Shown one piece after another: positions 30,045 to 34,862 of a stretch of DNA of 64,000 nt. The notes below the pieces were generated by a model. The model did not search any database. It was not told where the DNA came from and worked only from the letters and a program-made list of their open reading frames with translations. The first letter of the stretch is position 1, and every line of letters begins with the position of its first letter. The position numbers were made by a program, and so were the translations under genes. The DNA is from Aliarcobacter thereius LMG 24486. Its GTDB lineage: Bacteria > Campylobacterota > Campylobacteria > Campylobacterales > Arcobacteraceae. The stretch covers positions 1,612,001-1,676,000 of the forward strand of contig NZ_CP035926.1 of NCBI RefSeq assembly GCF_004214815.1, written 5' to 3'.

Positions 30045-30068
30045 ATAAAGCTACAAAAGTAGCTTTAT
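30045..30068. terminator. Stem-loop between fabH and the SspB-like gene
   Basis: Ten-base arms ATAAAGCTAC (30045-30054) and GTAGCTTTAT (30059-30068) close an AAAA loop between convergent gene ends. The flanking T-runs are short on both strands. Confidence 0.6.
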
Positions 30069-30074
30069 CTTCTC

Positions 30075-30506
30075 CTACAAGAACTTCTTATTTTTTGGAT
30101 TATTTTTAAATAATTCAAATGAATCTTTTTTCTTTTTAATATCTTTTTTATGTGTTGCGACAAGATTTATAGCAACAATATTCTCTTCTACTATAACTTG
30201 TAATATTGAATAAAATGGAATACTTACTAAACTTCCAAAATTATTTTCACCAAATCCTGCCTCAAAAAACAATCTATCATCTTTTATAAAAGATGATTCA
30301 AAAGTATATCCAGCTAATGAAAATAAAGAAAAATTACTTAAATTTTCTTTTATACCTTTTGGTAAATCTGGATTAAATTTTATATCTTGAAGATTAGCTA
30401 CTATTCCAAAATATATCTTTTTTTCAAGAAGTAAACTAATAATATTTTGAATATTATTAGTACTTATTTCACTAAAATTATCACTATTTAAAATCTCTTT
30501 TAACAT
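30075..30506 (-). CDS. SspB-like protein (ClpXP adaptor fold), unproven
   Basis: I do not know this 143-residue protein by name. Its core FFEAGFGENNFGSLVSIPF and ILQVIVEEN (residues 80-109) follows the same pattern as SspB (FNARFG, VSVP, a helix, EN). The N-terminal ISLLLEKKIYFGIVANL also matches SspB helix 1 and strand 1. A basic linker leads to the tail NPKNKKFL, reminiscent of the ClpX-binding tail of SspB. SspB hands ssrA-tagged peptides to ClpXP. ATG at 30506 was chosen (GAGG six bases upstream) over an in-frame GTG at 30518. It follows two dynamin-like genes; the DLP stop ends one base before the start. Confidence 0.55.
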   Translation of the reverse strand: MLKEILNSDNFSEISTNNIQNIISLLLEKKIYFGIVANLQDIKFNPDLPKGIKENLSNFSLFSLAGYTFESSFIKDDRLFFEAGFGENNFGSLVSIPFYSILQVIVEENIVAINLVATHKKDIKKKKDSFELFKNNPKNKKFL

Positions 30507-30507
30507 T

Positions 30508-32526
30508 TTAAACCTCACTTTTTACAATATCTAAATCTTCAATTTTATTTAAATATTGCTCTTTTTTATCTAGTATAAATTTTACTCTATCTTCATTTAT
30601 ATTCAAATATTGTTCTTTTGAATATTTTATAATTTTGAAAAGATAATTTCTTTTTGAAGTTAAAAAATCTTCAATCTTTTCAAAAGCAAAATTTGCTTTT
30701 AATTTTGCAACTATTTCATCTTCTCTTGGATGATTAATTGAAAATCTTGTAGGCTCTTTTTTATATAACTCTTCTGATTCTACTATTTGTTGTTCAAAGT
30801 GTGCAATTGTTGCTTGAGTTACTTGAATGTATGAATAAGATAAAGCTCCATTAAAATATGCAAACTTCTTTCTAAGTGCTGAAATATTTTCTAAAATAGC
30901 CTTATGAAACTCTCTTAAAACATTCTCATATACTTTTGCTGCAAAGTGTCTTGTATTTGAGAACTCAACATCAGAAGCTATTTCTCTGTTTTTTTTCATT
31001 AATTCATACGGTTCTTGCCACTTAACAACATCATTCCTAATTAATCTATAAACATCTCTAAATGCTTCATCTGTATCTAGTTCAATATTTTTTAAAAGTC
31101 TAATTGATTTTTTAAACATCTTATCTACTGTTTGATCATCATAAAAAAGTGCTTTATATACAGAATCACTATCTATCCAAAGAGTTTCATATTCTACTCT
31201 TTCAATTTTTTGTCCTAAAATAGATTTGCTCTCTTCAAATCTTACAGCTTTTTTAGTTTTTATATTTTTAAATGTTTCATTTGCAATCTTTTCCATAATT
31301 GAAATAAGAGAATTATAGATAGTAAAAAGCTCTTTTGAATACTTTGATAGTATTTCATCAAATGCTTTTAAAACTTTATCTTCTAGCTCATTTAAAACTA
31401 CAACCAAAGCATCATATACTTTTAAAATTGTTTCATACTCTTTTATCAAAATATCACAAAAAGATCTTAAATCTTTTTTAATTGCAAACTCTTTAGCTTC
31501 TGAAGCTTGTGGTCTTATAACATTTTCAATAAAATCAATAACTTCTTGTATATTTGACTCTTCAAGAAGTTCTGTATTTTTTACTGTATCTTTATTTTTT
31601 ATTTTCTCTATTGTTTTTTTATGTTCATTCAAAAGATTTTCAAATCTATTTTCATCTTCAAGAGATTTTAATTCATTTTTTAAAAGATTTATGAAATCTC
31701 TGTTTTCATCTTCGATTAAAACTTCTTTCTCTTTTGCTCTTCCTTCTAAAGCTTTTATTGCAGAAATAGGTACAACTTTTGCAAAATATTTATTAAATTT
31801 ATCTTCTACATATTTTGTAGTTGTTATAACTTGTTCAGGGCTTAATTTATCTTTTTGATTTAAAACACAAAGAGATTTATTTTTAAAATGCTCCATATAC
31901 TCTTCTAAAACTTGTGCTTCAGACAATTTTCCAGCATTATCAATAAGTGTAAGCCAAATAATTCCACCAACATCTTTTAAAACTCTTCTTGTAACATCGG
32001 TATCACTTTGTGATTGTGAGTTAAGTCCAGGAGTATCTACAAATGATATCTCTTTTAAAATTGGCATTGGTGCATATAGTGTAAGATATTTGATATTTTT
32101 CATATCATCTTGTCTTTGGTCAGTAAAATCTGCAATACTTTCAATCGGAGCATATTCAGTTGCTCCTGAATGATATGTGATTTTTAATTTATATTCATCA
32201 CCATAATTTATAAAATTTACTTTTGAAGTAACAGGAGTTATTCCTGTTGGTAAAATATTTCTAGATAATATTGCATTTAGGAATGTAGATTTACCTGCAC
32301 TAAATTGTCCTGTAATAGCAACTTCCATAGGATATCTAGCTCTTCTTAATTGTTTATTTAATATATTTTTTAATTCTGTTGATGGAAAAAACTTCTCATC
32401 TAAAAGTTTATCAATTGTTTTTTTAATATCTCCAACTAATCCATCTTCATATATTATCTCTTCAACTAAATCTTGTGCTTTATACTCTTCTATGAAATTC
32501 TTTAAAATATTTAGATTTATACTCAT
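30508..32526 (-). CDS. Dynamin-like GTPase, short member of a tandem pair
   Basis: The 672-residue protein has a dynamin-type GTPase domain: P-loop GQFSAGKS at 73-80, a switch threonine in TPVTSK (97-102), DTPG at 164-167 and NQKD at 223-226. Long helical, coiled-coil-rich regions follow to the C-terminus. The pair matches the tandem dynamin-like proteins next to frdCAB in Campylobacter jejuni (Cj0411/Cj0412), reported to form a membrane-tethering hetero-oligomer. The ATG overlaps the stop of the longer partner (ATGA), so the two are made together. A role in membrane bridging or remodelling follows from the family. Confidence 0.9.
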   Translation of the reverse strand: MSINLNILKNFIEEYKAQDLVEEIIYEDGLVGDIKKTIDKLLDEKFFPSTELKNILNKQLRRARYPMEVAITGQFSAGKSTFLNAILSRNILPTGITPVTSKVNFINYGDEYKLKITYHSGATEYAPIESIADFTDQRQDDMKNIKYLTLYAPMPILKEISFVDTPGLNSQSQSDTDVTRRVLKDVGGIIWLTLIDNAGKLSEAQVLEEYMEHFKNKSLCVLNQKDKLSPEQVITTTKYVEDKFNKYFAKVVPISAIKALEGRAKEKEVLIEDENRDFINLLKNELKSLEDENRFENLLNEHKKTIEKIKNKDTVKNTELLEESNIQEVIDFIENVIRPQASEAKEFAIKKDLRSFCDILIKEYETILKVYDALVVVLNELEDKVLKAFDEILSKYSKELFTIYNSLISIMEKIANETFKNIKTKKAVRFEESKSILGQKIERVEYETLWIDSDSVYKALFYDDQTVDKMFKKSIRLLKNIELDTDEAFRDVYRLIRNDVVKWQEPYELMKKNREIASDVEFSNTRHFAAKVYENVLREFHKAILENISALRKKFAYFNGALSYSYIQVTQATIAHFEQQIVESEELYKKEPTRFSINHPREDEIVAKLKANFAFEKIEDFLTSKRNYLFKIIKYSKEQYLNINEDRVKFILDKKEQYLNKIEDLDIVKSEV

Positions 32527-34862
32527 TGATTTAATCCTTTTATATATGTTAAAGTATCCTGCAATTTCTTAATCTTATTGTGAATTTCAATTGATTTTTC
32601 AGCTCTATTTTCATCATTCTCTTTAAAATTATAAAGCTCTTTTTCAAGCATCTCTTCATCACTTTTTACTTTTTGTTCATATGCAATAACTGGTGCATTT
32701 AAAACTTTAAAGAACTCTTCAACTAGTTTTTTACTAAGTGTTTTTGCTTTTACTTGCAAATCTTCTACAATTGGAGAAAATTGTAATTTTATAATATTTT
32801 GAAGTTCTCTTTCAAGTTCATTTAATTTTGACTCTTTTGCACTATTTGTCTCTTTTAAAATTAAGTTTATTAAAACATCATAACTTGTTGTTAAAAAACC
32901 ACTTTTAAAATCCTCTTGAAAAAAACCTCTTGCATCAAAATTATCATTTTTATGTCCTATGCTAAAGCCAAAATCATGATATTTTTGTTCACATTGTTCT
33001 CCAATAGTTTGAGATTTTTTTATAAATTTATATCTATAATCTCTAATAATATCTATTATTCCATCTTTTATAGCAGTTTGAATAATAACTCTTACTCTTT
33101 GTTCATCTGATCTTTTTTTATCTTTTACTAAACTATATTTAACATCATTTAAAACTCTTTGTTTTATTATATTTTGAAGATCAATCAGCTCACTTTGTAA
33201 AAAAGTATCCAATGAATCAATATAGTTTTTTGCATCATTCTTATAAAAACTAATATCCTCTTTTATTCTAAATAGTGATCTCTCTTGTTTTGCCTTTTTA
33301 TCTCTTAAAATATTTAAATCTTTTTCTAGTTCATCTTTTGATTTACCAAGTAGTTTTATTTCATAATTTAAAATATTAATTTGTTTTTCTAATAATTTTA
33401 ATATTTGAACTCTTGCTGACTGTATAAGAAGATCACCTTTTTGTGAGTTTTCTCCAAATAAAGAATCATATAGATAATCTTCTATTTGTGTTATTCCTGT
33501 ATCTTCAAGAGTATATCCTGCGTTTATTGCTTCATCTGCTCTATTTGTTCTATGAAGTAATGCCATATGTCCAGATATTGCAACAAATTTTATACTACTC
33601 AAAATATGATCTATTTGAGAATCTTTATTTTGTGCTTTTAGTTGTCTTTGTATTGATGTTTTTGTATAGTTTATAACTTCTTCAAGATTTTTTTTACTAA
33701 CAGTATCTGCTCTTGTAATTACAACTAAAAGTTTTGTTATATTTTGATATAAAACTGCATCAATTATAAATTCAACATCTTTTAAAGTTGCACTTTGAGA
33801 AACATTCATCAAATGAAGCATAATATCACACTTGCTTATATACTCTTTTGTAATCTCTTCTCTTTGAATAACTGGATCATCAAGACCTGGTGTATCAACT
33901 ATTTCTATTCCATCTTGCAAAAATTTCAAATCACTACCAAGTTCAACATATTTTACAAGATTACATTTTTTTCCACTATGTTCAGCTGATGTATATGATT
34001 TAAGATTATTTATATCAACATCAGCAAATTTTGATTCATCTTTAATATAGTTATTTATTTCACTCCCAAAAACTCTTTTTGTCTCTTCCACAAACTCTTT
34101 CATAGATTCTAAACTATTTGCACTATTTTCTATTTTATTCCACTCTTGTTTATTCCAGAAATATACTTTTGCACTTGGAGTTTTACTATGTTTTACTATT
34201 GTTAAATTTGCTGTTTCAGGAACAACTGCACTTCCTAGAATCTCTTTTCCCATAAGTGCATTTAGCATTGTTGATTTACCTGCACTCATAACACCTGTAA
34301 TTCCAATAGAAAATTTTTTGCTATTTAAATAAGTTTCAATATTTTCTAAATCATTCTTTAACTCTTCATTTTTTATTTGAGTTCTTAAATCTTCTAAGAT
34401 TCTTTCTAATATATCTTTTATATCTTTAAATGCTATTTTCTTAGAACTATCTTCTATATCAACTTTTTTAGTGGTTTTTATCTCTTTATAATCAAATAAA
34501 GATGTAAGCTTTGAGTAGTTTTCATTACTTATTATGTTCTCATCTTTTAAATATAAAAAAGTATTATGAAGATTATCTAAGCTCTCTTTTGTACTATTTT
34601 TTGAGATTATATCAATAATTGAGTATTGAACTTGATTTAATTCATTTATATTTGTAGGACTTTTTATATCCAATTGCCTACAAAGACCTTTAAAAGAATC
34701 AAGATTTATAAATTTTGTATAATTTTTTCTATGTGCACAAAGTATTAATGCAAATACAGTAAAGCTATCTTTCCCTAGCTTATCATCTATATAATTTAAC
34801 TCTTGCTCTTCTTCAAAAACTAATCCATGATAAAGTAAAAAATAATCACTAATTAAACTCAT
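32523..34862 (-). CDS. Dynamin-like GTPase, long member of a tandem pair
   Basis: The 779-residue protein has an N-terminal helical extension of about 140 residues, then a dynamin GTPase domain with P-loop GVMSAGKST at 190-198, DTPG at 323-326 and TRAD at 383-386. Long coiled-coil regions follow (about 480-560 and 690-779). The partner gene overlaps its stop by 4 bases. Upstream is frdB, but a 17-base-stem hairpin at 34892-34932 separates them, so these genes may depend on read-through or on a promoter in the roughly 30 bases before the ATG. Function by family: GTP-driven membrane binding or tethering at the inner membrane. Confidence 0.9.
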   Translation of the reverse strand: MSLISDYFLLYHGLVFEEEQELNYIDDKLGKDSFTVFALILCAHRKNYTKFINLDSFKGLCRQLDIKSPTNINELNQVQYSIIDIISKNSTKESLDNLHNTFLYLKDENIISNENYSKLTSLFDYKEIKTTKKVDIEDSSKKIAFKDIKDILERILEDLRTQIKNEELKNDLENIETYLNSKKFSIGITGVMSAGKSTMLNALMGKEILGSAVVPETANLTIVKHSKTPSAKVYFWNKQEWNKIENSANSLESMKEFVEETKRVFGSEINNYIKDESKFADVDINNLKSYTSAEHSGKKCNLVKYVELGSDLKFLQDGIEIVDTPGLDDPVIQREEITKEYISKCDIMLHLMNVSQSATLKDVEFIIDAVLYQNITKLLVVITRADTVSKKNLEEVINYTKTSIQRQLKAQNKDSQIDHILSSIKFVAISGHMALLHRTNRADEAINAGYTLEDTGITQIEDYLYDSLFGENSQKGDLLIQSARVQILKLLEKQINILNYEIKLLGKSKDELEKDLNILRDKKAKQERSLFRIKEDISFYKNDAKNYIDSLDTFLQSELIDLQNIIKQRVLNDVKYSLVKDKKRSDEQRVRVIIQTAIKDGIIDIIRDYRYKFIKKSQTIGEQCEQKYHDFGFSIGHKNDNFDARGFFQEDFKSGFLTTSYDVLINLILKETNSAKESKLNELERELQNIIKLQFSPIVEDLQVKAKTLSKKLVEEFFKVLNAPVIAYEQKVKSDEEMLEKELYNFKENDENRAEKSIEIHNKIKKLQDTLTYIKGLNQ

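What the first reader, a model, noticed from the sequence alone, without database searches (positions are those of the whole stretch)
30075..34862. SspB-like protein encoded with a dynamin-like pair
The 143-residue protein shares the pattern F-x-A-x-F-G ... V-S-I-P ... I-L ... E-N with SspB, the N-terminal helix-strand layout, and a basic C-terminal tail like the ClpX-binding tail. SspB delivers ssrA-tagged proteins to ClpXP. Campylobacterota are not generally credited with SspB. Its coupling to membrane-bridging dynamins could link targeted proteolysis to envelope upkeep, a combination I do not know to be described.
Basis: partly seen in the sequence, partly recalled or inferred. Interest (0 to 1): 0.65.

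Follow-up and report, generated by a model that had tools for sequence, protein, structure and literature searches.

The report
Divergent SspB-like adaptor in Campylobacterota
A small uncharacterised protein found in nearly all Campylobacterota (the phylum of Campylobacter and Helicobacter) is a remote relative of SspB, the protein that hands ribosome-rescue-tagged proteins to the ClpXP protease; the tags themselves have changed in the two lineages that lost it, while its position next to membrane dynamins is a local accident of gene order.

Summary
The open reading frames are real: P (30075-30506, 143 aa) follows a dynamin pair (DLP2, DLP1) on the minus strand. The SspB reading holds; the dynamin coupling does not. 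AlphaFold models of P and of a Sulfurimonas orthologue each match SspB structures and nothing else in the PDB: ranks 1-19, probability 0.95-1.00, the next match unrelated. Profile-profile comparison agrees (P-value 3e-5, above all 300 shuffles), and SspB is the most frequent sub-threshold hit of orthologues in Pfam and NCBIfam. No curated SspB cut-off is reached, so P is a new remote branch, not a curated member. The family occurs in 387 of 397 Campylobacterota genomes. New functional evidence: in all 48 P-bearing genomes examined the ssrA tag carries an aromatic residue before the P-A of its C-terminal half (ANNTNY-APAYAKAA here). In the two genera that lack P throughout (two families, 8 tags) it is Leu (ANKKEL, ANNNKL). 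That is what loss of a tag-binding adaptor predicts. DLP2 adjoins P in only 11 of 26 congeners; elsewhere P lies in a conserved block ending in smpB. Published work predicts SspB to be absent from H. pylori. Not shown: binding to tag or ClpX.

The parts
30075..30506 (-). P: SspB-like protein, 143 aa (ATG at 30506; an upstream in-frame GTG start at 30518 gives 147 aa)
   Evidence: ORF; family in 387/397 Campylobacterota genomes; AlphaFold pLDDT 87.9; Foldseek ranks 1-19 all SspB
30216..30266 (-). core strands F81-E-A-G-F-G86 ... V94-S-I-P97, equivalent to F-N-A-R-F-G-G ... V-S-V-P of E. coli SspB
   Evidence: invariant or nearly invariant columns; hhalign aligns them with the SspB strands
30078..30122 (-). 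conserved C-terminal tail S129-F-E-L-F-K-N-N-P-K-N-K-K-F-L (family consensus S-M-x-x-[FL]-[LK]-[SN]-N-P-x-N-x-K), after a variable, low-confidence linker; proposed partner-docking peptide
   Evidence: S129, N136, P137 and N139 conserved across the phylum; the linker varies in length and has pLDDT < 50 in both models
30508..32526 (-). DLP2, dynamin-like protein (Cj-DLP2-like); neighbour, not part of the proposed adaptor system
   Evidence: Dynamin_N E=7e-29; adjacency to P in 11 of 26 congeneric genomes
32523..34862 (-). DLP1, dynamin-like protein (Cj-DLP1-like); neighbour
   Evidence: Dynamin_N E=8e-30; lies beside frdB in this window
30045..30068 (-). terminator-like hairpin 3' of P
   Evidence: 10-pair stem followed by a T-containing tail; consensus match only

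Best explanation
P is the Campylobacterota branch of the SspB adaptor fold. It most likely binds the N-terminal half of the ssrA tag (A-N-N-x-x-[Y/F], here ANNTNY of ANNTNYAPAYAKAA) in the groove of its beta core, and tethers the tagged protein to ClpXP through its flexible linker and conserved C-terminal tail. Shown here by computation: the SspB fold (predicted); near-universal presence in the phylum; co-occurrence in this genome with tmRNA and a ClpX carrying the zinc-binding domain; and loss of the tag's aromatic residue in both genera that lack P throughout. Inferred: tag binding, ClpX binding by the tail, and dimerisation. The dynamin neighbours are not part of the mechanism; the adjacency is a gene-order change within this genus.
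For: Fold: two AlphaFold models (pLDDT 87.9 and 84.7), each with Foldseek PDB ranks 1-19 all SspB from gamma- and alphaproteobacteria (prob 0.95-1.00, target-normalised TM up to 0.67), including SspB-ssrA complexes; the next match is unrelated. Sequence: hhalign of 59 P proteins vs 13 SspBs, prob 73%, P=3e-5; positive control alpha vs gamma SspB 94%, 1e-7; above 300 shuffles. Of 59 P proteins, PF04386 is the most frequent Pfam hit (7; best E 0.002) and SspB models the most frequent NCBIfam hits (up to 10; best E 2e-4). Phylum-wide: 387/397 genomes. Tags: 48/48 P-bearing genomes have Y/F before the P-A element; genera g53 (no P in 5/5 genomes, one of them only 56% complete) and g70 (no P in 4/4) have Leu in 8/8 tags examined (Fisher 1.9e-7 by genome, 0.005 by genus), while the C-terminal APAYAxAA half is kept. 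smpB lies about 5 kb downstream of P in at least 39 of 80 loci. ClpX zinc domain and tmRNA are present in this genome.
Against: No member tested reaches a curated SspB cut-off (21 bits at best vs 135-249); the window protein itself has no SspB hit in Pfam or NCBIfam, and the P profile finds nothing in the PDB by sequence. The tail is not the known ClpX-binding motif (R-P-x-L-R-V-V-K or V-V-S-L-D-x-F-R-K-K). Profile comparison with alpha SspB alone is not significant. Four single genomes without a detected P keep Y or F in the tag (G381, G346, G236, G038), although congeners of the first three carry P, all four are drafts, and G038 has lost the adjacent Asn3 (A-N-K-I-T-F). Only two independent clade-wide losses underlie the tag correlation.
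Confidence: 0.8

Rival explanations
1. P has the SspB fold but binds other client peptides (for example a regulated substrate), not the ssrA tag; the tag correlation is coincidental drift.
For: SspB itself binds another peptide, RseA (1yfn is among the structural hits). Only two independent clade-wide losses. Four single genomes without a detected P keep an aromatic residue.
Against: In both lost clades the change hits the N-terminal half of the tag (where SspB binds in E. coli, PMC8512704) at the same position, to Leu, while the C-terminal half is kept; 48/48 P-bearing genomes keep the aromatic. A second, non-tag role is not excluded, since E. coli SspB has both.
Confidence: 0.13
2. P is a component of the dynamin system (membrane maintenance): targeted proteolysis linked to membrane bridging.
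For: Tight adjacency in this genome (one base between the genes; hairpin after P) and in 11 of 26 congeners.
Against: DLP2 is 25-52 kb from P or on another contig in the other 15 congeners; 9 of 42 tested genomes have P without a detected DLP2. C. jejuni has an HcpA-like gene in that place. The conserved neighbours elsewhere are pabC, lysR, uvrD, truB, ispE and smpB.
Confidence: 0.03
3. The SspB resemblance is a chance convergence of a small beta fold.
For: No curated profile threshold met; TM-scores moderate (0.41-0.67).
Against: All 19 top structural hits in each of two searches are SspB, with a wide gap to the next fold; independent agreement from profile-profile comparison, shuffles, sub-threshold HMM hits and tag covariation.
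Confidence: 0.04

Closest known systems
SspB of gamma- and betaproteobacteria (E. coli, H. influenzae; PF04386)
   Same: Predicted fold; FxAxFG...V-x-[IV]-P core strands; N-terminal helix; flexible linker with a conserved basic tail; a tag whose N-terminal half has Asn and an aromatic residue (AANDENY vs ANNTNY)
   Different: Below curated cut-offs; about 9-17% identity in structural alignment; tail motif S-M-x-x-F-L-S-N-P-x-N-x-K instead of R-P-x-L-R-V-V-K; no sspA seen next to P in the ORF lists of the window and of L049, L064 and L073, by eye
SspB-alpha (Caulobacter, Agrobacterium; 2qaz, 2nys)
   Same: Structural match (target-normalised TM up to 0.67), long N-terminal helix, a divergent SspB serving its own group's tag
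   Different: Profile comparison of sequences alone is not significant; tail is V-V-S-L-D-x-F-R-K-K in alpha, N-P-x-N-x-K-F here
Cj-DLP1/Cj-DLP2 dynamin pair of C. jejuni (PMC6104087)
   Same: The two upstream genes: Dynamin_N, adjacent pair
   Different: In C. jejuni the third operon gene is HcpA-like, not P; P is not consistently linked to the pair

Membership tests
SspB adaptor family | SspB fold | tested here: met
   Two AlphaFold models; PDB Foldseek ranks 1-19 all SspB, prob 0.95-1.00
SspB adaptor family | Score above the curated cut-off of PF04386 or an NCBIfam SspB model | tested here: not met
   No hit in own genome; orthologues at best E 2e-4, 21 bits vs cut-offs of 135-249. Hence described as a remote branch, not filed as a curated member
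SspB adaptor family | Sequence homology at profile-profile level | tested here: met
   A6 vs A3: prob 73%, P=3e-5; above 300 shuffles; not significant vs alpha SspB alone
SspB adaptor family | Binds the N-terminal half of the ssrA tag | not testable with these tools
   Indirect only: the tag's aromatic residue is kept in 48/48 P-bearing genomes and is Leu in 8/8 genomes of the two P-less genera
SspB adaptor family | C-terminal ClpX-binding motif (RPxLRVVK or VVSLDxFRKK) after a flexible linker | tested here: not met
   A linker plus a strongly conserved tail exists, but its motif differs: SMxxFLSNPxNxK
SspB adaptor family | Dimer through the N-terminal helix | not tested
   Only single-chain models could be made; the helix (residues 9-28) is present
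SspB adaptor family | Partners present: tmRNA and ClpX with N-terminal zinc-binding domain | tested here: met
   tmRNA with tag ANNTNYAPAYAKAA; ClpX zinc domain E=1e-10
Dynamin pair operon (Cj-DLP1/2 type) | P is a conserved partner gene of the pair | tested here: not met
   Adjacent in 11 of 26 congeners; P without a detected DLP2 in 9 of 42 genomes tested

The most novel reading that the evidence does not exclude
A phylum-wide, previously unrecognised SspB branch that has co-evolved with a distinct ssrA tag (A-N-N-x-x-[Y/F]) and docks on ClpX through a tail motif unlike any described, including in Helicobacter-type genomes, where the adaptor was predicted to be absent.
Probability: 0.55. Interest if true: 0.72.

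Novelty: new variant of a known kind. Interest (0 to 1): 0.64.

Why it matters
Trans-translation is essential in H. pylori, and tagging there affects stress resistance and competence, yet how tagged proteins reach the protease is unexplained. The published account says the tag lacks an SspB motif, that SspB is predicted absent, and that mutating the last two Ala of the tag (DD) stabilised the reporter only weakly (PMC2584231, PMC2862035). A divergent adaptor that reads the other half of the tag would account for this, and would give a hypothetical gene conserved across the phylum a testable function. The loss of the tag's aromatic residue in clades without the gene suggests a general way to find hidden adaptors from tag sequences.

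Tried and rejected
Pfam and NCBIfam scans of the window protein alone: nothing relevant. P profile vs PDB sequences: no match. Profile comparison with alpha SspB only: not significant, so the sequence link rests on the gamma and mixed alignments and on structure. Coupling to dynamins rejected. C. jejuni cj0413 as the orthologue of P: rejected, it is HcpA-like. ARAGORN's tag for G208 (ALSS...) was a mis-call; reading the gene gives ANNANYAPAYAKAA. G257 (P present) gave no tag call and was left out. A remaining doubt, whether P is truly absent in G381, G346, G236 and G038, could not be resolved; all are drafts.

Full report
WHAT IS THERE. The minus strand carries DLP1 (32523-34862), DLP2 (30508-32526) and P (30075-30506; 143 aa), tightly spaced. 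P's ATG follows the DLP2 stop by one base, with a purine-rich ribosome-site-like stretch inside the end of DLP2, and a terminator-like hairpin follows P. DLP1 and DLP2 carry Dynamin_N, and DLP1 lies next to a frdB-like gene (gene named from its sequence, not searched). The genome is a 1.9 Mb member of the Arcobacter/Aliarcobacter group, judged by the nearest named loci.

IS P A CONSERVED PROTEIN. Yes. It was found in 59 of 60 relatives and in 387 of 397 Campylobacterota genomes, 66 of 68 genera. Invariant or nearly invariant positions: F33, F44, P46, L48, P49, F62, Y67, T68, F81-E-A-G-F-G86, Q103, N114, S129, N136, N139. A copy on a Sulfurovum plasmid is annotated only as 'hypothetical protein'.

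IS IT SspB-LIKE. The AlphaFold model from 54 aligned sequences has pLDDT 87.9. Against the PDB the first 19 matches are all SspB, from E. coli, H. influenzae, Caulobacter and Agrobacterium, including SspB-ssrA and SspB-RseA complexes, with probability 0.95-1.00; the 20th match is unrelated (E 0.74, prob 0.02). A second model, of a Sulfurimonas orthologue, gives the same result; its alignment overlaps the first, so the two are not fully independent. By sequence, profile-profile comparison of 59 P proteins with 13 SspBs gives probability 73%, P=3e-5 over about 95 columns, in the register expected from the FxAxFG strands. The positive control (alpha vs gamma SspB) gives 94%, 1e-7. The trimmed-core score of 27.0 exceeds all 300 column shuffles (maximum 22.6) and the reversed alignment (22.3). 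Scanned one by one, P proteins hit PF04386 more often than any other Pfam family (7 of 59, best E 0.002), and the NCBIfam 'ClpXP protease specificity-enhancing factor' models more often than any others (up to 10 of 59, best E 2e-4), far below the curated cut-offs in those examined. Comparison with alpha SspB alone was not significant. I therefore call P a remote branch of SspB, not a curated member.

DOES IT READ THE ssrA TAG. Direct binding cannot be tested here. E. coli SspB binds the AANDENY half of AANDENYALAA (PMC8512704). This genome's tag is ANNTNYAPAYAKAA. I collected tags from 60 genomes (one further genome gave no call). All 48 with P have Tyr or Phe just before the [ARS]-P-A element. 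Two genera lack P in every genome searched, even at E<=10 with the diverse profile: g53 (5 of 5 genomes, one only 56% complete; family f13) and g70 (4 of 4; family f10). The 8 tags read from these two genera all have Leu there: ANNNKL, ANNKKL, ANTNKL; ANKKEL, ANKNKL. Their C-terminal half (APAYAxAA) is unchanged. Fisher test: 1.9e-7 by genome, 0.005 by genus; the genome-level figure ignores relatedness, so the genus-level one is the fairer. Because most other genera of f10 and f13 carry P, these look like two independent losses; I built no species tree. Four single draft genomes without a detected P keep Tyr/Phe. Congeners of three of them carry P, so assembly gaps or recent loss are possible; the fourth (G038, ANKITF) has lost the Asn3 that all 48 P-bearing tags keep. 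The Asn3 remark is post hoc.

HOW IT PROBABLY WORKS. Inference: P captures the N-terminal half of the tag in its beta-core groove, and the linker plus conserved tail (S-M-x-x-[FL]-[LK]-[SN]-N-P-x-N-x-K) contacts ClpX, whose zinc-binding domain and tmRNA partner are encoded in this genome. The tail differs from both known SspB tail motifs, so its partner is unproven.

WHY NOT THE DYNAMINS. Comparing P and DLP2 positions, they adjoin in 11 of 26 genomes of this genus and are 25-52 kb apart or on another contig in the rest; 9 of the 42 genomes tested carry P without a detected DLP2. Outside this family of genomes P lies in a conserved order: cysK or pepF, a pabC-like aminotransferase, P, lysR (opposite strand), uvrD, truB, ispE, smpB (gene names from sequence recognition). 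The tmRNA partner smpB was seen within the fetched flank in 39 of 80 loci, a lower bound because many contigs end first. In this window the pab genes lie about 20 kb from P. The DLP-P adjacency is therefore best read as a derived gene order.

WHAT IS KNOWN. Thibonnier et al. 2008 state that H. pylori's tag lacks an SspB recognition motif and that the adaptor is predicted absent; their DD mutation of the tag's last two alanines stabilised the reporter only weakly, while a tag truncated by stop codons gave stress and competence defects (PMC2584231, PMC2862035). A P protein is present in genus g42, whose tag VNNADYAPAYAKAA differs by one residue from the H. pylori tag as I recall it; H. pylori itself was not searched by name. 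My literature searches found no report of SspB in Campylobacterota, in a library limited to open-licence papers.

VERDICT. SspB-fold homology: about 0.93. ssrA-tag adaptor for ClpXP: about 0.8. Tail docking on ClpX: about 0.6. Dynamin link: about 0.03.

Noticed in passing
L036, L039, L040, L043, L049, L064, L078 and others, about 5 kb downstream of P: smpB, the tmRNA partner gene, lies in a conserved block P-lysR-uvrD-truB-ispE-smpB in at least 39 of 80 loci; whether this reflects function or inherited gene order is open.
   Followed up: partly
G053, G290, G055, G041 and other tmRNA loci (L168, L188, L190, L192): Some tags have RPA instead of APA after the aromatic residue (ANNTDYRPAYAVA) and vary in length at the C-terminus; the cause was not examined.
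   Followed up: no
G290:C1:1470613-1470986 and 1495909-1496283: One genome has two matches to the tmRNA family over the cut-off about 25 kb apart; the second copy's tag was not read.
   Followed up: no
G328, G067, G221, G282 (L149-L152): In some genera of family f13 P is very divergent (FEAGFG changed to FRAGV or FVVGL, tail partly lost), while the tag keeps Phe; possibly an adaptor in decline.
   Followed up: partly
G010:C1:477004-480872 and G032:C1:2667608-2669634: DLP2 appears broken: split into two pieces 1.8 kb apart in G010 and carrying in-frame stops in G032.
   Followed up: no
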